64,000 nucleotides of DNA from Elusimicrobium sp. (GTDB lineage Bacteria > Elusimicrobiota > Elusimicrobia > Elusimicrobiales > Elusimicrobiaceae): positions 124,001 to 188,000 of the forward strand of contig SUVG01000002.1 in NCBI GenBank assembly GCA_015062115.1, written 5' to 3'. The notes beneath the pieces are model-generated. The model was given only the letters and a program-made list of their open reading frames with translations, searched no databases and was not told the origin of the DNA. Positions 9,628 through 33,879 of this stretch are shown here, in pieces. Both the position numbers and the translations under genes were made by a program. Position 1 is the first letter of the stretch, and each line of letters begins with the position of its first letter.

Positions 9628-10161
9628 ATGAAAAAGGGTTTTACTTTGATAGAACTTTTGGTCGTAGTGTTAATCATCGGTATCTTGTCGGCGGTGGCGT
9701 TACCTCAATACGAAAAAGCCGTTTGGAAAAGCCGTGCTTCTACCATGCTTCCCAATGTGAAGGCTTTGGCAAACGCGCAGGAGTTATATTATTTAGCGAA
9801 CGGCACTTATGCTACGGCCTATGATCAGTTAGATATTTCTTTTGACAGTTTGCCCTATACAACTAGTAGTGACGGTCGTTTAACCGCGGCTTCCGGAAAT
9901 GCTACTCGTGCAAACAAAGATTATAAATTGGTTATAAATTCTGTGCCTGCTAGATTTTTTCATAGCACGGCGATTTTTACTACAGGTCCTTATAACGGAG
10001 GTGGCTTGCTGATTCCACATGTAGTTTATAATTTAAGCGTGGAAAAAGGGGCTTTGTATTGCTTTGAATATGATGTGGTAAAAGATAAATTCTGTAAGCC
10101 TTTTTACGGGGGTATAAGTGTTGGGAAAGCCAACGAAATTACTTATTATAAAATTCCTTAG
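9628..10161 (+). CDS. Type IV pilin-like protein (PilE/pseudopilin family)
   Basis: This 177-residue protein starts with a class III pilin leader: a very short basic segment MKKG, the prepilin peptidase site G|FTLIELLV with glutamate at position 5 of the mature protein, and a hydrophobic N-terminal helix (to about residue 24) ending in [16 protein letters not shown]. The C-terminal part is a variable globular domain with two cysteines (about 147 and 156) that could form a D-loop disulfide. The ATG at 9628 has an AAGAGG Shine-Dalgarno 6 bases away; an in-frame start 13 codons upstream would spoil the prepilin leader. It is a single-gene unit with its own terminator. It could be a pilus subunit, a minor pilin or a type II secretion pseudopilin; no assembly genes are in the window. 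Many such stand-alone pilin genes are a known trait of Elusimicrobium. Confidence 0.88.
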
Positions 10162-10175
10162 TATTATAACAATAA

Positions 10176-10209
10176 AACACCCCGCAGATAAGTCTGCGGG
10201 GTGTTTTTT
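10176..10209. terminator. Bidirectional rho-independent terminator
   Basis: A perfect 13-base-pair stem (AACACCCCGCAGA and its complement) with loop TAAG is followed by six T on the plus strand and by TTTTATT on the minus strand. It can end both the pilin-like gene and the converging lpx operon. Confidence 0.9.
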
Positions 10210-10228
10210 CAAACTAACAAATTTTTAT

Positions 10229-11056
10229 CTACACTGCCAACAAACAAAGGTGGTGTTTATCTGCCAAGGTAATTACTTCTTCCAAATCTAAAACTAAAGT
10301 TTTTTCGGCCTCAAAAGCCAGTACCGAAAAGCCGGCCTTCACCACGGTTTCTACGGTGCCTTTTCCCAGAACGGGTAAGTCGTAGCGAAAATCTTGGTTG
10401 GGGCGGGCCACCTTTACTACGGCTACGGCGGAGTGTTTTTCGGCCCCTTCGCGGTAGAGTTCCCCGGCGCGTAAAATACAGCGGTCGGTTCCTTCCATGC
10501 CTTCTACGGCTATCACGGCGTTTTGCCCTACCACACAGGTAAGGCCGATATCCATGGCGGCAATTTGTTTAGCCGTTTGATAGCCGAAGTCCACCACTTT
10601 TTGTTCTTCTTCGGTGGGTTTGCGTTTGGATAAAACGCCTTTGGCGGGCATAAAATCTTCCAAAAACAGAGCGGAACTGGTAAATTCTATTCCGTCTTTT
10701 TTGAACTCGTCCATCACACGCGAAAGCAAGTTTTTGGTTTGCATATTTTTTAAGGAAGCCAAAAATTTTGCTCCGCGCAAGTCCGGCATGAGGTTAGAGA
10801 AGATATTGGTGTGCTTTACGCGCCCGGCCATTACAATTTGCGTAACGCCGTTGTTTTTGAAGAAGGAAATGGCTGCGCCCAGTTGCCCCAATCTTAAGGA
10901 TTGGAACACTGTGGCGCAGTGTTTGAAATCTTCTTCTTTGGCATTTCCTTTGGCTCCGGCGACAAAAACCTCATACCCCTTTTCCATGGCTTTTTGAGCA
11001 ATGTAAACGGGCATTTTCCCTTCGCCGGCAATGATGCCAATTTTATTCTTCGTCAT
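10229..11056 (-). CDS. lpxI: UDP-2,3-diacylglucosamine pyrophosphatase LpxI
   Basis: LpxI hydrolyses UDP-2,3-diacylglucosamine to lipid X and UMP, the fourth step of lipid A synthesis; it replaces LpxH in many bacteria. The 275-residue product matches the LpxI (formerly DUF1009) family in length and in its segments KIGIIAGEGKMP near the N-terminus, QIVMAGRV, and GTDRCILRAGEL. I chose the ATG at 11056, which overlaps the end of lpxA by 14 bases; an earlier in-frame start would lie further inside lpxA and add residues without family similarity. It is the last gene of the bamA-lpx operon and is followed by a terminator. lpxB, which normally acts next, is not in this window. Confidence 0.9.
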   Translation of the reverse strand: MTKNKIGIIAGEGKMPVYIAQKAMEKGYEVFVAGAKGNAKEEDFKHCATVFQSLRLGQLGAAISFFKNNGVTQIVMAGRVKHTNIFSNLMPDLRGAKFLASLKNMQTKNLLSRVMDEFKKDGIEFTSSALFLEDFMPAKGVLSKRKPTEEEQKVVDFGYQTAKQIAAMDIGLTCVVGQNAVIAVEGMEGTDRCILRAGELYREGAEKHSAVAVVKVARPNQDFRYDLPVLGKGTVETVVKAGFSVLAFEAEKTLVLDLEEVITLADKHHLCLLAV

Positions 11057-22298: not shown

Positions 22299-23267
22299 TT
22301 AAAAGTTATTTTCTAACAGTTTTGCGGCTACTTTGCCGGTAAAGGAGTAGGGGTCGTCATGGGAAAGTTTTTCCAACTGTTGGCGTGCGGAAACAGTTTT
22401 GCCCAACCGATATTCATTAAGGGCTTTGATAAAAAGGGCGAGCGGGTCTTCCGGTTCTGCGGTTAAGATATATTGAACGGTTTGCAGGGAAGCCTCGTAA
22501 GATTTTTCCTGATAGAGCCACAGGGCTTTTTGTGCCAATAAATCCTTACGCTCAGGGGCCAATACCAAGGCTGTGTTCAAGTCCTTAAGGGCTTCCTGTG
22601 TTTGGGAAAGGCCGTAACGGGCTTTGGCACTTAGGAGCCAAAAGTCCGGGTTTTCGGGTTCCTGGTTTAAGGCCAAAGTAATGTTTTGGAAGGCTTTAGA
22701 AAACTCGCGTTGTTTTAAGAAGGTGTTTGCGTAGCGCGCCCGATAAATGGGGGTTGCGTTGGGCTCTTGTTCAAAAAAGCGGTCGTACAGAACGCGGGCT
22801 TTGGAGTAAAAACCTTGTGCGGCATAGTTATCGGCTTGGCCGGAAAGGGCCGCCAAGTTGTTCGGTTCCTCTTTCAATACTTGCCCGTATAGTTCCATAG
22901 AACGGTCTGACAGGCCGGTGCGTTGATATAGTTGGGCAGCTGCCAGTAATAACGGTATATTATCCGGGTGGAACTCCAAGGCTTCCAAATAGACTTCCAA
23001 TGCTTTTTCCGGGTTGTCTAAATGTTCGTAACTAAGCCCCAACAAGCGGTAAGCGCGCACTTCGCGTCGTTTCACATTTTTTGTTTTATAAATGTACTCG
23101 GTCAGTTCTACCACGGCTTGCTCATATCTTCCTTCGTTAAAACAATCGCGCGCCCGTGTGTATTCTTGGCGGTCTCCCACCGGGGCCAAACCCAAAAAGC
23201 CGGCCCGGCAAGCGCCTAAAAGAAGGCTTAATAAACAAATAAAAAATACTTTACGGTTTAAGTACAT
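22299..23267 (-). CDS. TPR-repeat lipoprotein
   Basis: This is a predicted lipoprotein (lipobox L-G-A-C, Cys20) made almost entirely of tetratricopeptide repeats: about eight TPR-like helix pairs between residues 35 and 320, with repeats such as RAYRLLGLSYEHLDNPEKA. TPR lipoproteins generally hold envelope protein complexes together. The ATG at 23267 lies 17 bases inside the end of the patatin gene, so translation is probably coupled; a TTG four codons earlier is possible but less likely. It is the last gene of a six-gene envelope operon. No specific ortholog recognised. Confidence 0.75.
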   Translation of the reverse strand: MYLNRKVFFICLLSLLLGACRAGFLGLAPVGDRQEYTRARDCFNEGRYEQAVVELTEYIYKTKNVKRREVRAYRLLGLSYEHLDNPEKALEVYLEALEFHPDNIPLLLAAAQLYQRTGLSDRSMELYGQVLKEEPNNLAALSGQADNYAAQGFYSKARVLYDRFFEQEPNATPIYRARYANTFLKQREFSKAFQNITLALNQEPENPDFWLLSAKARYGLSQTQEALKDLNTALVLAPERKDLLAQKALWLYQEKSYEASLQTVQYILTAEPEDPLALFIKALNEYRLGKTVSARQQLEKLSHDDPYSFTGKVAAKLLENNF

Positions 23268-24213
23268 AAGGCAACGCAAAGAGCAGGAGATCTTCCTGCA
23301 GTTTCTCCAATTTGTGGTGAGTTTCCAACATGCCTACTTCTCCGGCTTTGTGGAGTTTGTCCATTTCCAAAGTTCCGATATCCAAAACCCTGCTATTGAG
23401 TACAAAGTTGGCTTTTTGGGCAGATTCTTCAATCATGGCTGCCCCGCGTACATCTCCTACGCGCAGTAAGTAGGCCGCTACACTTTGGGGGGTTTTGGAA
23501 AAAAAGTCCGGCGGGGTAATGGACGCTAAAATATAGTCTGCCCCCATAGATTTTACAGATTCTACCGGCAGATAATCTACCACGGCTCCGTCCACAAGCG
23601 CACGGTGGCGGTATTCGACGGGTTCAAATACCCCCGGCAAGTTCATGCTGGCCCGTACGGCAATGGCAAGCGGGCCCGAATCAAACACTACCCGTTCCCC
23701 GGTTTTAATGTCCATGGCGGCACAGGTAAACGGGATACGCAAATCTTCAAATTGCATATCGCCCAATTGTTCGTGGAAAAAATTGAGTAAATTGGAAGAG
23801 GACGGGAGCCTTTTGGCAAACAGAAAACGGAAAAGCCCCATTAAATCAAAATCGGGGGTGATATTGTCCAGGGTGAGGTGCTCGCTGATGTCCCACAACC
23901 GTTCGGTAGGCAAACCTGCCGCATAAAGAGACCCGATAACCGAACCCATGGAAGTACCGGAAATCATATCGATAGGGAAGCCGGAATTATCTAATGTTTC
24001 CAAAACTCCCACATGGGCAAAACCCCGTACTCCGCCGGCGGAAAGAGCCACCCCCACTTTGGGGCGTTCTTCTTTGGGAAGAGAAACAAACTGCTGCCAC
24101 AAAAAATCGCGCAACACATCGTCATCACTCTGTATTTCCAGAGCACCGGAAGGTTGCACGGCCCATAGGGCAAGCAGCAGACAGCCCGCCAAACGGCGGA
24201 GAAAATTTTTCAT
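23251..24213 (-). CDS. Exported patatin-like phospholipase (RssA/NTE type)
   Basis: Patatin-like enzymes are lipid acyl hydrolases with a Ser-Asp dyad. The 320-residue protein shows the oxyanion loop SAGGVRGFAHVG, the nucleophile elbow GTSMGS (Ser88) and the catalytic DGAVVDYLP (Asp208). A signal peptide covers about residues 1-24, so it should act on periplasmic or outer-membrane lipid. The start shares one base with the tolC-like stop. Some secreted patatins are fused to an outer-membrane barrel that exports them; this one has no barrel of its own, but its operon has a separate barrel protein and a TolC-like protein. Phospholipase activity is inferred from intact motifs. Confidence 0.88.
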   Translation of the reverse strand: MKNFLRRLAGCLLLALWAVQPSGALEIQSDDDVLRDFLWQQFVSLPKEERPKVGVALSAGGVRGFAHVGVLETLDNSGFPIDMISGTSMGSVIGSLYAAGLPTERLWDISEHLTLDNITPDFDLMGLFRFLFAKRLPSSSNLLNFFHEQLGDMQFEDLRIPFTCAAMDIKTGERVVFDSGPLAIAVRASMNLPGVFEPVEYRHRALVDGAVVDYLPVESVKSMGADYILASITPPDFFSKTPQSVAAYLLRVGDVRGAAMIEESAQKANFVLNSRVLDIGTLEMDKLHKAGEVGMLETHHKLEKLQEDLLLFALPYVLKP

Positions 24214-25508
24214 TATAAATCCTGGCCAATGGCCCACTCTAAGCGGGCTTTAGATACATGGTTTTGACGGACGGCATCTAAATAGTTTTGCGCCGCCGCG
24301 GAATAAGCACCCAACGCTTCCAACGGAGCCGTGCCTGTTTTAGGGGAAGAATCGGCTTTTTTCAGTAATTTTTTCAGTTCGTTATAGGTGTTTTGGCGAA
24401 CCAATACCTCTTCTTGCCAAAAGAGCATATCGGCAAAATTTTCGGCCACTTGAATACGTATTTTATCTTCAATGGCGGCACGCCGTAAAGAACTTTTCTT
24501 TTGTTCCGCTTTCTTTTGCGCAATCTGTTCCGAAATGTTGTAGGGAATCGGTAAACGCACAGCCAAAGAGATTTGTTTGTTTACTTCATCTAAACTATCG
24601 GTTCCTAACTGTTCAAAGGAGCCGTTCAAAATAATATCGGGGTAGCGTTTGGAGAGGGCTAAATCCATGGCGATATTATCCGCTTCCAACGCATACAGGG
24701 CTGATTTCAATTCCGGGCGGAACTCCAAGGCCCACAGGTTGAGGTGGGGGAGGTCTCTATCCGTATGAACGGGAGAAAAATCCCCTTTAATGGTAATGTT
24801 GGAATTGAGTTCTTTGTTTAAGCTGACGAGCATGGCCAGCTGGGCTTTTTTAAGCAGTCGGGCAGCATCGCTTTGTTTGGTTTTAAGGTCGGCCAGCAAG
24901 GCATGAATTTGTATTTGTTGCCACAAATTGCCGCCGGGGCGTTTGTACCAAGAATCTGCCATAGTGGCTATTTCGTTTGTCAGTTTGGCATATTCCTGCG
25001 CGTACAAAAGGCCGTAGAAAGATTGTTTGATGTCCAAAATCGCCGCGCTTTTGACGATTTCGTAGCGGCTTTGGACTTGCTTTAAGTGGGCCCGCGCCAT
25101 TTTAAGCGTGTTATTGATTCTCCCGCCGGAATAGATATATTGCGTGGCGGTAATTCCCACTCCGTAAAATTGGTCTTTCCCGCCCAGATATTCGCTTCCC
25201 GGCAAAAAGCGGTTGGCTACAGCATCGGGCAATACCATGGGATAGTCCAAATCGAACCAAGTAGCGGTGCCTTGGAGAGAAAATTGCGGCAGATAACGAA
25301 ATTTTGCCTCGTTTACTTTTTGCTCTGCAATGATAATTTCCTGTTGGGCGGTGAGAAATTCGGAATTATTTTCCAAGCCCAAGCGAATGGCATTTTCCAA
25401 GGTTAAATTGTCGTTAATCAGGCTGGAAAATTTAAGCCCGTATTCTTTTTGCGCAAAAACGGTGCCGGCGCAACACAACGCAAGCACAAGCGCAACTAAT
25501 TTTTTCAT
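24213..25508 (-). CDS. TolC-family outer membrane efflux protein
   Basis: This 431-residue protein with a signal peptide (about 1-20) belongs to the outer-membrane efflux (OEP) family. It has two helical-hairpin halves, each beginning with a family-like segment (LTLENAIRLGLENNSEF near the N-terminus and LRAALEADN-like residues in the second half), and a tripartite-pump-style barrel segment (FYGVGITATQYIYSGGR). TolC proteins form trimeric channels that normally work with an inner-membrane pump and a periplasmic adaptor. Neither is encoded nearby, so its partner must lie elsewhere or the protein has a dedicated role with the neighbouring patatin and HAMP proteins. Confidence 0.88.
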   Translation of the reverse strand: MKKLVALVLALCCAGTVFAQKEYGLKFSSLINDNLTLENAIRLGLENNSEFLTAQQEIIIAEQKVNEAKFRYLPQFSLQGTATWFDLDYPMVLPDAVANRFLPGSEYLGGKDQFYGVGITATQYIYSGGRINNTLKMARAHLKQVQSRYEIVKSAAILDIKQSFYGLLYAQEYAKLTNEIATMADSWYKRPGGNLWQQIQIHALLADLKTKQSDAARLLKKAQLAMLVSLNKELNSNITIKGDFSPVHTDRDLPHLNLWALEFRPELKSALYALEADNIAMDLALSKRYPDIILNGSFEQLGTDSLDEVNKQISLAVRLPIPYNISEQIAQKKAEQKKSSLRRAAIEDKIRIQVAENFADMLFWQEEVLVRQNTYNELKKLLKKADSSPKTGTAPLEALGAYSAAAQNYLDAVRQNHVSKARLEWAIGQDL

Positions 25509-25519
25509 ACAACCCCCGT

Positions 25520-25984
25520 TTACTTCTCTTTATTTTTATTGATTTCCGCTTCTACGCGGTCCATCATTTTGTTAAATTCGGCTTGCAGTTCGGTCAGTTG
25601 ATCGCCTTGGCGCAAGCGTACCCGTTGGGAAAAATCACCTTTGGCGATTTCTTTGCAGGTTTGTTCAAAGCGATACACGGGCCCTGCCATTTTGTGAGAC
25701 AAAATAGCCGATATCAATACCACAAACAACAGGTAGATGGCTATTTTATAGAAAAAACTGGCCGCAATGGGGATAAACTCGTCGTAAATGGGTTGAACCA
25801 GTACGGGGTAGGAATCAAACAGATCATTTAAGGTTGCGGTCAGTTCAAAAGTCATAATAGCCAACCCGCACAGCACGCTTAAAATAATCATCATCATGTA
25901 GCGCAGTTGCAACGCTTTTTTGATGAAAATCGTGCGGCGTTTGAATTGCGGGTGTTTGTTCGGGGGAACGGTCGGTTGGTTCAT
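25520..25984 (-). CDS. Membrane protein ending in a HAMP domain, no output domain
   Basis: This 154-residue protein has a basic cytoplasmic N-terminus, a first membrane segment (about 30-50), a short periplasmic loop of about 25 residues, a second segment (about 75-97) and then a HAMP linker (about 98-150) with the motifs AGPVYRFEQTCKEIAKGDFSQR and a helix ending in KNKEK. HAMP domains normally pass signals to a kinase, cyclase or chemotaxis domain; none follows here. It may signal to another protein or act as a structural clamp. It sits 9 to 11 bases from its neighbours in the envelope operon. No specific function is known to me. Confidence 0.8.
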   Translation of the reverse strand: MNQPTVPPNKHPQFKRRTIFIKKALQLRYMMMIILSVLCGLAIMTFELTATLNDLFDSYPVLVQPIYDEFIPIAASFFYKIAIYLLFVVLISAILSHKMAGPVYRFEQTCKEIAKGDFSQRVRLRQGDQLTELQAEFNKMMDRVEAEINKNKEK

Positions 25985-25993
25985 AAGGCCTCG

Positions 25994-26722
25994 TTAAAAA
26001 TGGGTTACATAGCGGATTTGTAAAATGCGTTCGCTTTCGCTTCCACGGCCGATGCGGCGCACGGCTGCATCTAAGGCTAAAGAGGGGTGGAGATAAAAAC
26101 GGGCCCCCAAATTCAGGCGGGAATCGCGCATATTGCGGATATTATCCCACTCGGCAAGCAGGCCTACTTTTTCGGCCAGGTTGTAATAAAGACCGGTGAA
26201 CATATACAGTTCGCTCCAGTCAAAATCGGAAAAATTGATACCGGCAGTGGCGTGGAAACCCGGTACGAAAATTTCGCGTGTGAGGGTTAAGTAGCCGCCT
26301 TTGCGGTCGTCCAGATAGTGTTTGGTATCTCTGTATTTGCGGGTTTCGTCGTAACCGTACCCATAGCGGCGGCCGTCGTAGCCGATGGCAATGGCAGGCA
26401 AATAGAGGCTTCCGTCGTAAATTTTCCATTTGGCTTGAAAATCCGGATCCAACACGCGCACCGAGTCGGACGAACCGAGCAGTTCATGCGCGGCAACGGA
26501 TACCCCGATGTTTAAGCGGGGGAATACGCCGAAATCCAAACTTTCCATGACGGTTCCGTGGTCGTAAGTGCGGGTAAGGAAGGAAACTTGGTAACGGTCA
26601 AAAGTTTCAGCCGTGGGGACATCAATGACGGTCGTTTCCACACTGATAGGGTCTCCCTGGGCGGCAAAGGCCGCCAAAGGCAAGAAGAAAAGTGCGGCTA
26701 AAAGAGAAATTTTCAATTTCAT
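25994..26722 (-). CDS. Predicted outer-membrane beta-barrel protein, 242 aa
   Basis: A signal peptide (about 1-20, AFAAQ end) is followed by alternating hydrophobic and polar strands rich in Tyr, Arg and Gly (for example YLTLTREIFVPGFHATAG and RLNLGARFYLHPSLALDAAVRR). The chain ends in RYVTHF, a terminal phenylalanine being typical of outer-membrane barrels. The strand pattern loosely resembles YjbH-type and other small barrel proteins, with about 10 strands. It lies 17 bases after the first lipoprotein gene of the operon. The barrel prediction rests on composition and the C-terminal residue; the function is unknown. Confidence 0.7.
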   Translation of the reverse strand: MKLKISLLAALFFLPLAAFAAQGDPISVETTVIDVPTAETFDRYQVSFLTRTYDHGTVMESLDFGVFPRLNIGVSVAAHELLGSSDSVRVLDPDFQAKWKIYDGSLYLPAIAIGYDGRRYGYGYDETRKYRDTKHYLDDRKGGYLTLTREIFVPGFHATAGINFSDFDWSELYMFTGLYYNLAEKVGLLAEWDNIRNMRDSRLNLGARFYLHPSLALDAAVRRIGRGSESERILQIRYVTHF

Positions 26723-26739
26723 GTTAATTATCTCCCAAG

Positions 26740-27294
26740 TTATAAGAAAGTGCGGACATCTTGCACTTCGGGTTTAGTGATGTAGCGGACGTTATGCAAA
26801 TAGACGCCTTCGCGAGCGGGCATAAAGTCGTTGCGATCGCGCGGAAATTCTACATCTAAAATGCCTTTTTCCAAACGGGAAGTAGAGGATACCACCGCTT
26901 TATGCCAGCGGTCTGTGCGGTCTTGATCCAGGGGCTCTTGGGGGTTCCAATAATTGCGGAGCACCACCGTGCCTTTGGTAATCGGGTCAGCCGAACCCAT
27001 GGCCGCCGTTTTTAAGATGACATCTTCCGTCCATACCACTTTGCCGCTACAGGGGCCGTTGATAAATTTTACTTTGTAGCGGGGGTTATCGTCGGACGGG
27101 CGTTTCTTTAGGTCTGCCAAGGAATAGAGGGCATAAGGTTGGCCTTCGTGTTGGCAGGCGGCAAAAACGTGGGTGTTCAAAAAGCGTTCGTAATCTTGTT
27201 TGTTATCCGTGCGGTTGTAGGGGGTTTTTTCAGAGTGGCACCCGGCAAGCAATGCCACGGAACAAATTAAAAAAAGGCTCAGCAGTTTTTTCAT
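26740..27294 (-). CDS. Lipoprotein of unknown function, 184 aa
   Basis: The N-terminus is a lipoprotein signal with lipobox L-A-G-C (Cys19). The mature part (about 165 residues) is hydrophilic with several predicted beta strands (RYKVKFINGPCSGKVVWTED, GILDVEFPRD, GVYLHNVRYITK) and two further cysteines (about 47 and 82) that might form a disulfide. I recognise no family. It is the first gene of a six-gene operon and has a good AAAGGAG Shine-Dalgarno and an upstream TATAAT box. Confidence 0.7.
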   Translation of the reverse strand: MKKLLSLFLICSVALLAGCHSEKTPYNRTDNKQDYERFLNTHVFAACQHEGQPYALYSLADLKKRPSDDNPRYKVKFINGPCSGKVVWTEDVILKTAAMGSADPITKGTVVLRNYWNPQEPLDQDRTDRWHKAVVSSTSRLEKGILDVEFPRDRNDFMPAREGVYLHNVRYITKPEVQDVRTFL

Positions 27295-27401: not shown

Positions 27402-27434
27402 TAAAAAAATCCCCGCCCGAGTAACAGGGCGGGG
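27402..27434 (-). terminator. Terminator after the anchored-pair genes
   Basis: On the minus strand CCCCGCCC (27427-27434) pairs with GGGCGGGG (27411-27418) and is followed by ATTTTTTT. It lies 22 bases after the stop of the 680-residue protein gene and separates it from the six-gene operon. Confidence 0.88.
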
Positions 27435-27456
27435 AAAAGCGGAACTGAAAAGCCGA

Positions 27457-29499
27457 TTAGTTGCGTTGATAAGTTCCTACATCTGTGCGGCTTTCTCGCA
27501 GGTTATCAGTATTTTCTTTATCGCCTTTAAGCTCGTCGGGGGTGGAGGTACCTCTTTTGAAAGAAGATTCCATTTTTGCCCGCAGCTCTTCTTTTCCGAA
27601 ATGCTGTTCAAGTGCTTCGTGCGCTTGTTTGCGGAGGGTGAGATTGTAGGATATATCGTCCGAGATTTCTTTTGCCCTGTCTATACTGGAAATGGGTTTC
27701 TCTCCGGAGCTTTCAGAGATTGCAACGGCATTTTTTCCAATGGCGGGGGATAAGCCTAAACCAATCAGCGTTGCGCCGGTTTTAGCGGTAGCAGTGTAGG
27801 CGAGGGTAGTTTCGGTTGCGGTGTTTTTATCCCGTGCCATTTCTCTGTTTTGCCTGCCCCAGGCTTGGAGGTCTTCTTGCGTATAGGCTACATAAGCGGG
27901 GGAGAAATTTTGGGCAAATTCAATTTCTTGTTGAATTTGTTCGGGGGTTTTCCCTAATTCGGCCAGTTTTTCAGGTAATGCTTGGATATATTCTTCCCGT
28001 ATTTGGGCATAGCGGTTTAACGGATCCCCTTTGAAAACAACATTTCCGGCCATATCCACGCTTTCTTTCAAAAAGTGATCCGGTTGGTCGGTTGCGGCCA
28101 CCCAAAAACAAGAGTTTTTTTCGCAATTGGCTTTAGATACCATGAATTGATACATTTGTTGAGCGACAAAACCGGACTGCTTTGCCAGATAATTTTTTTG
28201 AGCTTCGGGATCGGGATCGTTTTGCAATCCCTCACCATCCACTAGATTTTCCTGTAATCCTTGGGAAAATTTTTCTATATCCATTTCTTGCCCGTAAACA
28301 ACCGTTACGGGAAATCTGTAGTTTTTTCCGTTATCGAACTCAGGATATTTTTTGGCATTTTCCCGTCTTACTTCTTCTTTCTTTTTTTCATCAATGGGGT
28401 TTGGACCTTTAGTGGCGCAACTTACACTGTTATGAGATTTGAGAGATTTGTTTCCTCCGCAGCTCAGCGTTTCTATCAAACTGGGAGTGGCATTTTCCGG
28501 TTCTTCTTTTCCTTGTTGCACAGCCAAGGTTTCTTGTTTTACACTTTGCATTGTTTGTCTTATAAAAGCGCGTTGTTCTCCGGTGAATTGTTGGATAGCT
28601 TTTTGTTGTTCCGGTGTGTACGGAGGGGGCCCGAAACGTTCTTCAATGATTCTTTGGATATTTCCTTCATATTTTTCTTCCGGATAGAAAAGGGATAAAA
28701 CCTTACTTAAGATTTCGTTTTCATTTTCGCTATCGGCATTTTCTTCCTTATTTGTGCCGTTATCCCCGTCGTAGGAAATGTTGGGCATATTCATATCCGG
28801 CATGCCGGCGCGTTTGAATTGGCGCGGGTTCTTGGCCGATTCACGCTCTCCCTGTGCATAGGCCAGGCGGGCGGCTTCTTCGTCCGTCCAGTCCGTATCT
28901 TCCAAGGAGTAAGGGTCGTCAAACCCGAAGAATTGTTTAATGGGGTTAAAAATGCGGGCCAGTTTGGAGTCCGGCACGCGTTTGGTTTGCGGGTTGATAG
29001 CTACCGGGGTGAAACGGGCGGCGCGTTCGGCGCGGACATAGTTATCATACGCATCCCCCTTGGCGCTGATTTCGTGCATACCGCGGGAGGTGCCTTCCGG
29101 GGCTACTTGCGGAGCTAGCACCCATTCATCTTCGTAATCGCCAAACAACAGACCGCCGCCTTCCCCGCCGCCTGCTTGGGGTGTTTCTTCGGTAAGGGGG
29201 GAACCAGCAGCTCCGCGGGCATCAGCCAGCATTTCTTCGTTTCCTGCCAAGGCATTTTCGTTTGTGTTTTGCGCGGCGTTTGCGCCCGGGTGGGCGGAAC
29301 CTTTTTTGGTAAATACGGACGCAATCCGATTGACCAGTTCCGTCAACGGATTGGAAGTAAAAATTTGAGGGGTGGCTTGTTGGGCTGATTCCCCCGGTTT
29401 TTGGTTAACGGGTTTGTTGCCCATAAAAAACGGCAACGATAAAAAGAGCAACACCGCTACACCGAGCGAAATACCGACGATTTTAATAGTTTTTTTCAT
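27457..29499 (-). CDS. Membrane-anchored protein of unknown function, paralog A (680 aa)
   Basis: One N-terminal membrane segment (about 7-26) with a basic start anchors a long hydrophilic chain, most likely in the periplasm. Just after the membrane comes PQIFTSNPLT-x-LV-x-RI (44-59), then a low-complexity Ala/Gly/Glu part and the motif W-V-L-A-P-Q-x-x-P-E ending GMHE (126-143). Both are shared with the next gene upstream, paralog B. A third shared block is a helix LSLFYPEEKY near residue 270, followed by Gln-rich helices, and a fourth is FPVTVVYGQE. Four cysteines in two clusters (SC-GG...SC and NC-EKNS-C) suggest disulfides and support an extracytoplasmic location. I recognise no domain. 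It has an AAGGAT Shine-Dalgarno and lies 43 bases after paralog B. Confidence 0.72.
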   Translation of the reverse strand: MKKTIKIVGISLGVAVLLFLSLPFFMGNKPVNQKPGESAQQATPQIFTSNPLTELVNRIASVFTKKGSAHPGANAAQNTNENALAGNEEMLADARGAAGSPLTEETPQAGGGEGGGLLFGDYEDEWVLAPQVAPEGTSRGMHEISAKGDAYDNYVRAERAARFTPVAINPQTKRVPDSKLARIFNPIKQFFGFDDPYSLEDTDWTDEEAARLAYAQGERESAKNPRQFKRAGMPDMNMPNISYDGDNGTNKEENADSENENEILSKVLSLFYPEEKYEGNIQRIIEERFGPPPYTPEQQKAIQQFTGEQRAFIRQTMQSVKQETLAVQQGKEEPENATPSLIETLSCGGNKSLKSHNSVSCATKGPNPIDEKKKEEVRRENAKKYPEFDNGKNYRFPVTVVYGQEMDIEKFSQGLQENLVDGEGLQNDPDPEAQKNYLAKQSGFVAQQMYQFMVSKANCEKNSCFWVAATDQPDHFLKESVDMAGNVVFKGDPLNRYAQIREEYIQALPEKLAELGKTPEQIQQEIEFAQNFSPAYVAYTQEDLQAWGRQNREMARDKNTATETTLAYTATAKTGATLIGLGLSPAIGKNAVAISESSGEKPISSIDRAKEISDDISYNLTLRKQAHEALEQHFGKEELRAKMESSFKRGTSTPDELKGDKENTDNLRESRTDVGTYQRN

Positions 29500-29542
29500 A
29501 AGGGATCCTTTCTATGGTTAATTTCTAATAGTTTATAAGGTA

Positions 29543-31174
29543 CTATTTGTGATTCCGAGCGTAATTCGTTCCTACAACACTTAAAGGATTTTGGATCTTT
29601 TCCAATGCTTGCTGGAGTGCCTCTTTCGGGTCATAAAAATTGATGTTTCCGTTGAGAGCCATGCCAATAAAGGATCCCTCAAAGGTGCCATCGTAATCAA
29701 GAGTAGCATCTCTCTCTGCCTGTTCACCCGATCCCTCAGCCAGTTCTGTTGTGTCTTTATTGAATTCCTCAGAAAGATTCAAGAGGGAGTCTCCATTTCT
29801 AGGATTAACATTGATCGATTTCCGTCCTTCAGACGTCCAAGAAATAGCGGAATCGTTCACTGTTTCCCCATAGATGAGACCTGGGGTAACAATTTCTACG
29901 GATTTATATGGTATGCCTTGCATTTCTCCTTCTACATGTGTAGGATCTTTGGCTCCTTCAGCGCCTTTTTCCTCGTTTTCAAGATGTTGCCAAAAGCGAG
30001 AAATAACAGTTTTCGAAGTAGACAGCATGGAATTCGCACTTGAGGAGATTGCCTCCCACGTGGTCGCTTCCTTCCCCGCAGTTTTCGAAGTAGACAGCAC
30101 GAGATCCGCACCTGAGGTGGTTCCCTTCCCCGCGGCCTCTACTGCTGCTGCTACTCTTTGTAGCGTTGCAGTGTTAGTAAGGCCCATTTTCGTCAAACGA
30201 ACTTTTCCTTCTTCTTCTTTAGAGACAATAGTTATCGGCAAATCTATCGTTTCCTTCCCTTCTCGTTTGGCGGCACGAACATAATTACCCAAATAATCTT
30301 TCGCGGGCGGAGGCGGGGGCTCTTGCGAATCTAACATGCGCATGATATCTTCCCATTGGAGGCGGCGGAATTCCTTAATTACCTGTTCCTTTTTCTCTTT
30401 AATAAAAGCCTCTTTTTCTTTTAACGAAGCAGGTGTAGCCGGAACTAAACCGAATTTAACACTAGCATAATCTTCAACCAGTTTGGCTAATCTACGTTCG
30501 GGGTAAACAACATCCATGAGTTCTTTGAGGGCTTTTTCCGTCTCGCTGAGCGGGGCTTGTGTTTTGGTCGGTTCCGGGGCGTACCGTGCGGGCTTGGGCA
30601 ATTGCAGATTTGTATTGGCCCGGGCCAACAAAAGCGGTTCTTTTTGCGCCGAGAAAGAGGCGTTTTCTTCCGTCGGAGAGACAAGCGGCAAGGCTTGCAA
30701 CGGTTGTTCCGTTGCTTGCATCTCGGCAGATTGGGGCAGTTCCTCGTCGGTGTTGACCTCGTGCATACCTTTGACGCCCATATCTTCGGGCGAAATTTGC
30801 GGGGCAATCAACCAGTTCCCGTCGTCCTCTCCTTGCGGCAGTTCAATCGGTTCGCCGGGGGCATCTTCCTGCGACGGAAGTGTTTTTAACAGAGCGGCAC
30901 GGTAATTGGTGGGGGCAAGTTTCCTTTTTTCCTGCATGCGCGCTACCGCCAAGCGGCGTTTTTCCCGTTTTTTATCCCACTCGGTTTGCAGAGCATTTAC
31001 AATGCGTTTTACTAAAGTGGTAAGCGGGTTTGAAGTAAAAATTTGCGGACGGGGCCGGGCCTGCGCCGCAGGGACGGCGGACGGCGGAGGGGTGGTTTCC
31101 AAAAACGGAAGAAGTACAAAAATAATGCCGAGAATAAAAACCAATACAAATAAAAAACCCATCAGTTTCTTCAT
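29543..31174 (-). CDS. Membrane-anchored protein of unknown function, paralog B (543 aa)
   Basis: This protein has the same plan as its downstream neighbour: a membrane segment (about 5-24), the juxtamembrane motif PQIFTSNPLT-x-LV-x-RI (43-58), the W-L-I-A-P-Q-x-S-P-E...GMHE motif (121-139), the helix MDVVYPERRL and the strand DLPITIVSKEE. In between are Pro/Gln/Glu-rich linkers. The second half differs: it holds a 24-residue imperfect tandem repeat with core M/VLSTSKT, then a region rich in Gly/Glu. It has no cysteines, unlike paralog A. I chose the ATG at 31174, preceded by GAGG, instead of an in-frame start 14 codons earlier, since it begins the membrane anchor. Own promoter TTGAAA-17-TACACT upstream. 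No function known. Confidence 0.72.
   Translation of the reverse strand: MKKLMGFLFVLVFILGIIFVLLPFLETTPPPSAVPAAQARPRPQIFTSNPLTTLVKRIVNALQTEWDKKREKRRLAVARMQEKRKLAPTNYRAALLKTLPSQEDAPGEPIELPQGEDDGNWLIAPQISPEDMGVKGMHEVNTDEELPQSAEMQATEQPLQALPLVSPTEENASFSAQKEPLLLARANTNLQLPKPARYAPEPTKTQAPLSETEKALKELMDVVYPERRLAKLVEDYASVKFGLVPATPASLKEKEAFIKEKKEQVIKEFRRLQWEDIMRMLDSQEPPPPPAKDYLGNYVRAAKREGKETIDLPITIVSKEEEGKVRLTKMGLTNTATLQRVAAAVEAAGKGTTSGADLVLSTSKTAGKEATTWEAISSSANSMLSTSKTVISRFWQHLENEEKGAEGAKDPTHVEGEMQGIPYKSVEIVTPGLIYGETVNDSAISWTSEGRKSINVNPRNGDSLLNLSEEFNKDTTELAEGSGEQAERDATLDYDGTFEGSFIGMALNGNINFYDPKEALQQALEKIQNPLSVVGTNYARNHK
30007..30150 (-). repeat. Imperfect 72-base tandem repeat inside paralog B
   Basis: A 21-base stretch at 30007-30027 recurs exactly at 30079-30099, a shift of 72 bases (24 codons), with further partial matches downstream of each copy. 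It encodes two copies of a segment with core LSTSKT and appears to be a recent in-frame duplication. Confidence 0.8.
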
Positions 31175-31265: not shown

Positions 31266-32048
31266 TTAAGACCTAGCAGTAGCCTGGGCCTTTTGGGGGC
31301 GGGAGAACAATCGTTTTACAATTTCCCACGATTTTTGAATATGCGCCTTAAAAGGGTTGGTTTCTTGCTGGGTTGCGGTGGCGGGTTGGTCTTCCGGGTG
31401 GACGGGAAGCGAAAATCCCGCCCGGTACGCCAATTGGCGTAAATAGTTGGAAGGAATAGCAAAGTTGAGATTTTGGTTGCCTTCGCCGCTGTAACTGGCA
31501 AACGCAACGGAAACTACTTTCCCTTCCGCATTAAAAACGGGGCTTCCGCTGGAACTGGGCGAAATGGGCGCGCTGATTTGATGCCAAATCACACCGTCCG
31601 CCTTTTTGCGTACCTGGCTGATAAGACCCGAAGAAATAGTGTTTTGCAAGCGGCGCGGATTGCCGATAACCGTGATGGGTTGCCCGGGGAGGACGGTGTC
31701 CGAATCGGCCAAATACACAACGGGCAAATGCAAGGCTTTTATTTTTAGCAGAGACAAATCTACATTTCCTGCTTCGGCCACCACAATGGCTTCGCCCGAT
31801 ACGGCGCCTGTATTAAAAGTAATGTTGCTGTAGAGAGAGTCTTGTGTAACATGGCGGCTTGTGGCAATAAGCCCATCCTGTGTGAGTACAAAACCCGTTC
31901 CCGTGAAGGTGGTTCCGTCCTTTTTGGCCACATTGATAGTTACCACGGCCGGTGCGTTTTGGTTGGCAATAGCCACGTGGTCGTTCTCCGCCCCGAAACA
32001 GAGCGGCGATAAAAGGAACAATGCAGTAAAAAGGGGCAGATATCTCAT
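31266..32048 (-). CDS. Exported trypsin-like serine protease (HtrA/DegP-type catalytic domain, no PDZ)
   Basis: This 260-residue protein has a signal peptide (about 1-20) and a trypsin-like protease domain with the catalytic triad His66 (ATSRHV), Asp97 (GNVDLSLLKI) and Ser167 (PSSSGSPVF). HtrA proteins usually read GNSGGP at the nucleophile; here the second Gly is Ser, a mild change that keeps the active serine. The chain ends after a short basic tail, with no PDZ domain, so it is not a full DegP. It precedes the two anchored paralogs on the same strand and could cleave periplasmic proteins, possibly them. No Shine-Dalgarno is seen and a TATAAT box lies just 6 bases before the ATG, suggesting a leaderless mRNA. 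Confidence 0.88.
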   Translation of the reverse strand: MRYLPLFTALFLLSPLCFGAENDHVAIANQNAPAVVTINVAKKDGTTFTGTGFVLTQDGLIATSRHVTQDSLYSNITFNTGAVSGEAIVVAEAGNVDLSLLKIKALHLPVVYLADSDTVLPGQPITVIGNPRRLQNTISSGLISQVRKKADGVIWHQISAPISPSSSGSPVFNAEGKVVSVAFASYSGEGNQNLNFAIPSNYLRQLAYRAGFSLPVHPEDQPATATQQETNPFKAHIQKSWEIVKRLFSRPQKAQATARS

Positions 32049-32673: not shown

Positions 32674-33879
32674 TTATAAATTGAGTTCCGGAACATCGGG
32701 GTATCTGTACTTTTCAAACAAGGAGCGGAAGCTCACATCTTTTGTCCACCAGTAAAAGACACTTTCCAAAAACAAACCTTCCGCATAGGTAAGAGTGTTT
32801 TCATCTTCCGGCCAAGAGGGGGTTGTGCCATGCTTTTCCACATATTCAATTAAGCGGTCGGTGGTTTCGTCCAGGGTGATATATTTTTTGGGATAGGATT
32901 CCAAAATAGTTTGTATTTTTTCCCGCAACGGAAGAACATCTTTGAAAAAGTTAGTTTGGTTATGTTCCATGATTACCGAAATGCGGTTAAATAACAACCG
33001 TTCCTGCGGGTCTCCGCTGTGCCACGCCGGTAAACGGCCGTGTTGTGCCACAAACTGTTCCAAACGGGCCAACATTTCTTGGTAAACAATAACGGTAGAT
33101 TGGGCGTTATGCTCCGCTTGGACAATAGATTTTGTATGTTGGGTGTATGCTTCTTTTAACAACTCAAGGAGTTGCTGTTGTTGCACGGGAGTTAAACTCC
33201 GGGCCGCTATATATCCGCGGAGCAAGTCCTTTAAGGAAGCATCCAAAAACGGATTTTTCATAATCTCGCGGAACTTTAAGTTAATTTTATGCGGGTGGCG
33301 TACCATGTAATTTACCGCCGATTGGGCAAAGGTTTCCGCCGGGTTTTTAGAGGCAATAAAACGGAGTTCCGTGGAGGAAATAAATTCTACCGGAACGGAG
33401 TAGTAGTCCGCTAAATCCATTAAAAACTGTTCGTAGTTTTGGGTTTTTATCGATTGGGATAAGAAATCATGCAAAGCATTATTGCGTACGGCGATAATTT
33501 CGGTAAGCAAAGCTTCGCGGGCGGCTAAATCACCCAGGTCTAAACGGGGTTGCAACTGCTGGGCTTTGCCCAAAATGGCTTTGGCGGTGTAGCGCTCCAA
33601 ATCGTATGTATGTTGGCGGTTGAGCAAATTTTTCGTTGGAGAGTTGCTCATAACTGTTGCCAATATTTCTCCTTCCGTAGCGGCAGTTAGGGGGCGCAAG
33701 TTGGTGTTGATAAGGGTTCCGTTGACAACACGGAAACCGGCCCCCGCGGGCACACCCGTGACGGCCTTGGAAACACCTTTGGCGGTAACGGCCTTGGCGG
33801 CACCTTTTACAAGTTGCCCTTGCGCATGGGAAAGAAGAGGGGAAATAGTTAATAATAAAATAAGTATCGTGTTTTTCAT
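32674..33879 (-). CDS. Exported protein of unknown function, 401 aa
   Basis: A signal peptide (about 1-19, SHAQ end) is followed by a Lys/Ala/Val stretch and a largely alpha-helical protein. Two C-terminal segments resemble each other: LARLEQFVAQHGRLPAW and LIEYVEKHGTTPSW, each followed by about 15 residues and a hydrophobic helix. This L-x-x-(F/Y)V-x-x-HG-x-x-P-x-W pattern is like the helicase-associated repeat found in many Elusimicrobium-like and other exported proteins, here without a helicase. No catalytic motif is seen. It is a single gene with its own promoter-like box 6 bases before the ATG and no Shine-Dalgarno. Function unknown. Confidence 0.65.
   Translation of the reverse strand: MKNTILILLLTISPLLSHAQGQLVKGAAKAVTAKGVSKAVTGVPAGAGFRVVNGTLINTNLRPLTAATEGEILATVMSNSPTKNLLNRQHTYDLERYTAKAILGKAQQLQPRLDLGDLAAREALLTEIIAVRNNALHDFLSQSIKTQNYEQFLMDLADYYSVPVEFISSTELRFIASKNPAETFAQSAVNYMVRHPHKINLKFREIMKNPFLDASLKDLLRGYIAARSLTPVQQQQLLELLKEAYTQHTKSIVQAEHNAQSTVIVYQEMLARLEQFVAQHGRLPAWHSGDPQERLLFNRISVIMEHNQTNFFKDVLPLREKIQTILESYPKKYITLDETTDRLIEYVEKHGTTPSWPEDENTLTYAEGLFLESVFYWWTKDVSFRSLFEKYRYPDVPELNL

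What the first reader, a model, noticed from the sequence alone, without database searches (positions are those of the whole stretch)
27457..31174. Paralogous membrane-anchored proteins with two shared signature motifs
Two adjacent genes encode proteins with the same plan: N-terminal anchor, PQIFTSNPLT-x-LV-x-RI just after the membrane, W-x-x-APQ-x-x-PE...GMHE, a V/FYPE helix and an I-T-V/I-V strand, joined by low-complexity linkers. Only one has cysteines. An exported protease gene lies directly upstream. I recognise no known family; the pair may be a lineage-specific envelope scaffold, perhaps processed by the protease.
Basis: partly seen in the sequence, partly recalled or inferred. Interest (0 to 1): 0.65.

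Follow-up and report, generated by a model that had tools for sequence, protein, structure and literature searches.

The report
Protease-coupled membrane-anchored orphan protein pair
Gut bacteria of one Elusimicrobia family carry a fast-changing membrane-anchored protein of no known family, nearly always encoded right behind a secreted protease; the two probably work as one unit in the cell envelope, and this genome has an extra, reduced copy of the anchored protein.

Summary
P0001 (27457-29499) and P0002 (29543-31174) are true paralogs: residues 1-145 match at E=3e-13, and the YPE helix block beats all 2000 shuffles. The claimed shared "ITVV strand" is not supported. In P0001 it opens a folded alpha/beta domain with a conserved cysteine pair, which P0002 lacks. 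No Pfam, NCBIfam or PHROG family covers them, and the PDB search found no sequence or fold match for that well-predicted domain. The family occurs in three genera of Elusimicrobiaceae and was not found elsewhere in the class. Within the genus of the window nearly every genome has exactly one copy; P0002 is extra. In 43 of 44 loci the gene directly upstream encodes an HtrA-like serine protease with an intact triad and no PDZ domain. An intrinsic terminator follows the anchored gene in 32 of 39 loci, so protease plus anchored protein probably form their own transcription unit. In a sister genus whose protease is encoded elsewhere, the anchored proteins have lost the cysteine domain and most of the W..Q..P..GMHE motif. 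Best reading: a periplasmic protease with a dedicated inner-membrane-tethered partner. Whether the partner is adaptor or substrate is undecided. A new lineage-specific family, not a known system.

The parts
31266..32048 (-). P0003: exported trypsin-like (HtrA-like) serine protease, no PDZ domain; triad H66, D97, S167; conserved C-terminal amphipathic helix
   Evidence: Pfam Trypsin_2 E=3e-25; triad invariant in 29 of 29; C-terminal helix
29543..31174 (-). P0002: 543-aa membrane-anchored paralog without cysteines, lacking the alpha/beta domain; extra copy found only in this genome among 66 of the genus
27457..29499 (-). P0001: 680-aa membrane-anchored protein, the ortholog kept by the whole genus
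29425..29496 (-). P0001 transmembrane helix, residues 2-25 (K2-K3 at its start; folded part predicted outside)
   Evidence: hydropathy, AF2 helix 2-25
29311..29370 (-). P0001 PQIFTSNPLT-x-LV-x-RI motif, residues 44-63 (short amphipathic helix 51-63)
   Evidence: near-invariant in 45 sequences
29065..29130 (-). P0001 W-x-L-x-x-Q-x-x-P...GMHE motif, residues 124-145, weakly predicted as two short strands
   Evidence: W126, L128, Q131, P134, G140 invariant in 45 sequences; AF2
28465..28737 (-). P0001 YPE helical block, residues 255-345, shared with P0002
27682..28350 (-). P0001 alpha/beta domain (residues 384-606) with conserved Cys459/Cys464; no PDB fold match
   Evidence: pLDDT 84, pTM 0.78; Foldseek none at E<=0.001
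27475..27687 (-). P0001 C-terminal long helix, residues 605-675
   Evidence: AF2
30989..31048 (-). P0002 PQIFTSNPLT-x-LV-x-RI motif, residues 43-62
30755..30817 (-). P0002 W-x-x-APQ-x-x-PE...GMHE motif, residues 120-140
30320..30550 (-). P0002 YPE helical block, residues 209-285
27410..27435 (-). intrinsic terminator directly after P0001 (9-bp GC-rich stem, then T7)
   Evidence: same position in 32 of 39 relatives

Best explanation
P0003 and P0001, plus the extra copy P0002, form a small envelope module in Elusimicrobiaceae. The protease is secreted to the periplasm and lacks the PDZ domain by which HtrA proteases normally find substrates and oligomerise. The anchored protein is held in the inner membrane by its N-terminal helix. 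It reaches out on a long, mostly disordered arm carrying two conserved short motifs and ends in a disulfide-bearing alpha/beta domain followed by a long helix. The most likely mechanism is that the conserved motifs dock the protease, or another conserved envelope protein, at the membrane, so that the anchored protein acts as tether or adaptor; the variable C-terminal part selects a target or spans the periplasm. Shown: homology, predicted anatomy, adjacency, shared unit, co-distribution. Inferred: periplasmic location, disulfides, docking, adaptor role.
For: The protease ortholog is immediately upstream in 43 of 44 loci of the genus; the exception is cut off by the contig end. An intrinsic terminator lies 30-65 nt after the anchored gene in 32 of 39 loci, with no strong one consistently between the two genes. 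Protease orthologs (E<=1e-53) occur in the three genera that have the anchored family; in genera g14-g16 and the order-level outgroups only generic, weak HtrA matches occur. The triad is intact in 29 of 29 and no PDZ is found. The motif residues in the predicted disordered arm are invariant while the rest has diverged to about 30% identity, as expected of docking motifs. In g13 (protease adjacent) the W..Q..P..GM[HY] motif and the C-x4-C-F/Y-W core are largely kept (hhalign E=3.5e-5); in g12 (protease unlinked) the domain is not detectable and the motif is mostly gone.
Against: No physical interaction is shown. Evolutionary-rate covariation between protease and P0001 (partial r=0.31) is no higher than for some unrelated neighbour pairs. 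The family exists in g12 without linkage to the protease. A resemblance between the protease C-terminal NP-helix and the NPLT motif was not significant.
Confidence: 0.42

Rival explanations
1. The anchored protein is the dedicated substrate: the protease clips it in the disordered arm and releases the C-terminal domain, as a processing or stress-signalling step.
For: Long disordered arm between anchor and folded domain, protease gene in the same unit, fast divergence of the arm. In g12 the protease gene sits upstream of genes that look like ECF sigma factor, anti-sigma factor, a BamA-like protein and LpxD (read from sequence), i.e. an envelope-stress setting.
Against: No conserved cleavage-site-like segment was identified. 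The invariant motifs look like binding rather than cutting sites. P0001 has almost no cytosolic part that could pass a signal inward.
Confidence: 0.3
2. The anchored protein is a structural periplasmic tether or scaffold, linking inner membrane to wall or outer membrane; the protease is linked only as a quality-control enzyme for it or for the neighbouring outer-membrane genes.
For: Anatomy (anchor, long arm, folded domain, about 70-residue helix); the next unit encodes a lipoprotein, a YjbH-like predicted barrel, a HAMP protein, TolC and patatin throughout the genus.
Against: The terminator separates it from that unit. That block exists in the order-level outgroup and in g14 without the anchored family. 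Tethers are usually not the fastest-evolving gene of a locus.
Confidence: 0.2
3. A surface-exposed, host- or phage-facing protein under diversifying selection, with the protease as its maturation factor.
For: About 30% mean identity while the other compared genes of the locus show 57-91%; copy-number changes between lineages (1, 2 or 3 tandem copies); different C-terminal parts in g12.
Against: N-terminal inner-membrane anchor, with no lipobox or outer-membrane export signal seen; strict single copy in most of the genus is unlike antigen families.
Confidence: 0.08

Closest known systems
HtrA/DegP/DegQ/DegS (peptidase family S1C)
   Same: P0003 has the chymotrypsin-like protease domain (Trypsin_2, NCBIfam DegP hit 95 bits over residues 42-207) and an intact triad
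   Different: No PDZ domain; only 260 aa; far below NCBIfam cut-offs (416 bits for degP_htrA_DO); has instead a conserved C-terminal amphipathic helix
DegS-RseA / AlgW-MucA (protease with single-pass membrane partner; from general knowledge)
   Same: Envelope serine protease working next to a single-pass inner-membrane protein with a periplasmic domain
   Different: P0001 has no cytosolic sigma-binding domain, no sigma-factor gene lies alongside it in this genus, and no sequence relationship was found; the protease is soluble and PDZ-less
Magnetosome proteases MamE/MamO
   Same: HtrA-type protease with lineage-specific partner proteins
   Different: Only generic protease similarity (67 and 41 bits against cut-offs of 800); no magnetosome genes were noted in the loci read

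Membership tests
HtrA/DegP (S1C) protease - P0003 | trypsin-like protease domain | tested here: met
   Pfam Trypsin_2 E=3e-25; PDB HtrA chains at E=6e-18 and weaker
HtrA/DegP (S1C) protease - P0003 | catalytic triad His-Asp-Ser | tested here: met
   H66, D97, S167 in 29 of 29 orthologs
HtrA/DegP (S1C) protease - P0003 | at least one C-terminal PDZ domain | tested here: not met
   protein ends about 50 residues after the protease domain; no PDZ hit
HtrA/DegP (S1C) protease - P0003 | curated NCBIfam score cut-off | tested here: not met
   94.9 bits against 416.2
RseA/MucA-type anti-sigma substrate - P0001 | cytosolic N-terminal sigma-binding domain | tested here: not met
   transmembrane helix starts at residue 2; no Pfam hit
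RseA/MucA-type anti-sigma substrate - P0001 | cleavage by a DegS-type protease | not testable with these tools
   needs a protein assay
any known Pfam/NCBIfam/PHROG family - P0001/P0002 | profile match over the shared blocks | tested here: not met
   only a weak PHROG hit of unknown function in P0002 at E=0.004
any solved fold - P0001 alpha/beta domain | Foldseek match | tested here: not met
   none at E<=0.001 in PDB or BFVD; AlphaFold DB was not available

The most novel reading that the evidence does not exclude
The anchored family is a new class of membrane-tethered adaptor that replaces the PDZ domain for a PDZ-less HtrA protease, with a conserved docking arm and an exchangeable C-terminal target-binding domain of a new fold.
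Probability: 0.2. Interest if true: 0.65.

Novelty: new variant of a known kind. Interest (0 to 1): 0.42.

Why it matters
Elusimicrobiaceae are common, little-studied gut bacteria. Here is a protein family without any recognised domain that nearly every genome of one genus keeps, linked to an HtrA-like protease without the domain that normally guides it. If the anchored protein supplies that guidance, it would show another way of aiming an envelope protease. The pair is small and can be tested outside its uncultured hosts.

Tried and rejected
Known-domain search with Pfam, NCBIfam and PHROGs, including all 45 relatives in Pfam: nothing consistent. PDB by sequence and fold, BFVD by fold: nothing. 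Shared alpha/beta domain or ITVV strand in P0002: rejected, profile score below shuffles. Internal beta-alpha-beta-alpha-beta duplication in the domain: aligns in register and above 40 column shuffles, but hhalign probability is only 2%, so unproven. Shared NP-helix motif between protease C-terminus and anchored protein: not above background. Mirror-tree co-evolution of protease and P0001: not specific. Age of the P0002 duplication: unresolved; each copy is closer to other species' proteins than to the other copy, and P0002 sits on a very long branch. Ankyrin proteins as partners: seen beside two separate g12 loci, but these genomes are ankyrin-rich anyway. Literature: no paper describing this locus was found.

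Full report
What is there. The window belongs to a 1.44-Mb genome of a gut Elusimicrobiaceae; named relatives include Candidatus Avelusimicrobium excrementipullorum and uncultured Elusimicrobium species. On the minus strand, in order of transcription, lie P0003 (31266-32048, exported serine protease), P0002 (29543-31174) and P0001 (27457-29499).

Check of the pair. BLASTP between them gives E=3e-13 over residues 1-145. The block after the membrane helix scores 117 against a maximum of 54 in 2000 shuffles, and the YPE helix block 69 against 55. So the paralogy is real in two blocks. The third claimed feature, a shared I-T-V/I-V strand, is not supported: in P0001 it opens a folded domain that cannot be detected in P0002.

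The family. P0001 is the member kept by the genus. Of 66 genomes, 64 match with P0002 as query, and only the window genome shows two copies. One of the other two has a partial copy (G031) and the last is a 78%-complete assembly. A profile search finds the family in 86 of 90 genomes of the family Elusimicrobiaceae, in three genera; no match was found outside it in 196 genomes of the class, and the alpha/beta domain alone was not found outside the window's genus at E<=0.001 in 295 genomes of the phylum. Genus g13 has one or three tandem copies; genus g12 has up to three tandem copies plus dispersed ones. The three tandem copies of one g13 genome group together in the tree, so copies are gained independently. 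P0002 has a very long branch (2.87, against 0.89 for P0001 and a median of 0.31), and P0001 of this genome has itself drifted: 31% identity to a relative that shows 58% to a comparable third species, while protease and TolC of the window show 71% and 74% to the same relative.

Anatomy of P0001. AlphaFold2 on 45 natural sequences gives a transmembrane helix (2-25), a mostly low-confidence arm to about residue 250 carrying the two motifs, a helical block (255-345), an alpha/beta domain (396-590, mostly above 90 pLDDT) and a long helix (605-675). The domain alone folds with pLDDT 84 and pTM 0.78. Cys459 and Cys464 are near-invariant, as are Cys347 and Cys361, which fits disulfides in an exported protein (inference). 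Foldseek finds no PDB or viral match at E<=0.001. Cellular AlphaFold models could not be searched, so a new fold is not claimed.

Link to the protease. In 43 of 44 loci fetched from named genomes the protease ortholog lies immediately upstream; in the remaining one the contig starts at the anchored gene. The protease has an invariant triad in 29 of 29 and no PDZ. A strong intrinsic terminator follows the anchored gene in 32 of 39 loci, at different sequences but the same place; in the 220 nt before the gene only 8 of 39 show a candidate, mostly weaker. The window has one at 27435-27410. Protease and anchored protein thus most likely form one unit, apart from the next genes (lipoprotein, YjbH-like predicted barrel, HAMP protein, TolC, patatin, TPR), most of which are older, occurring in the outgroup and in g14 without this family. 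Protease orthologs of this type (E<=1e-53) occur in genera g1, g12 and g13, while g14-g16 and the outgroup have only generic, weaker HtrA hits. In g12 the protease lies elsewhere, upstream of genes that look like an ECF sigma factor, an anti-sigma factor, a BamA-like protein and LpxD (read from sequence). There the anchored paralogs lack the cysteine domain and most of the W..Q..P..GMHE motif, whereas g13, with the protease adjacent, keeps both in most copies. This is a correlation over three genera only.

Mechanism. The pattern (invariant short motifs in a disordered arm, a variable end domain, a PDZ-less protease in the same unit) is best explained by a membrane-tethered partner that holds or feeds the protease. 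Shown: homology, anatomy by prediction, unit, co-distribution. Inferred: location, docking, target choice. The substrate model is close behind. Rate covariation did not discriminate.

Verdict. A real, lineage-specific orphan family and a well-supported genetic link to an HtrA-like protease; function open. Interest moderate.

Noticed in passing
L080:7204-7845, L083:9092-9763 and 9923-10579, L084:5100-6589: In genus g12, exported ankyrin-repeat proteins sit directly beside the anchored paralogs, in both the main and a dispersed locus. The whole family is ankyrin-rich (22 Ank_2 matches in the window genome).
   Followed up: partly
window 32674-33879 (-): Predicted exported 401-aa protein without Pfam family, fast-evolving (23-39% identity within the genus) and near the protease locus on the other side of greA.
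   Followed up: no
window 22299-27294 (-): Lipoprotein, YjbH-like, HAMP-only, TolC, patatin and TPR genes form a conserved block; most of it recurs in another family of the order with a phosphofructokinase-like gene inside it. An old envelope locus of unknown task.
   Followed up: partly
L094-L097: In genus g12 the PDZ-less protease sits upstream of genes that look like ECF sigma factor, zinc-finger anti-sigma factor, Spy-like protein, BamA-like protein and LpxD, an arrangement resembling an envelope-stress locus.
   Followed up: partly
P0003 residues 227-248 (window about 31305-31370): The protease ends in a conserved amphipathic helix (often NP[LF]xxHIxKSWxIxKRLF) in place of a PDZ domain; possibly a membrane or partner contact.
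   Followed up: partly
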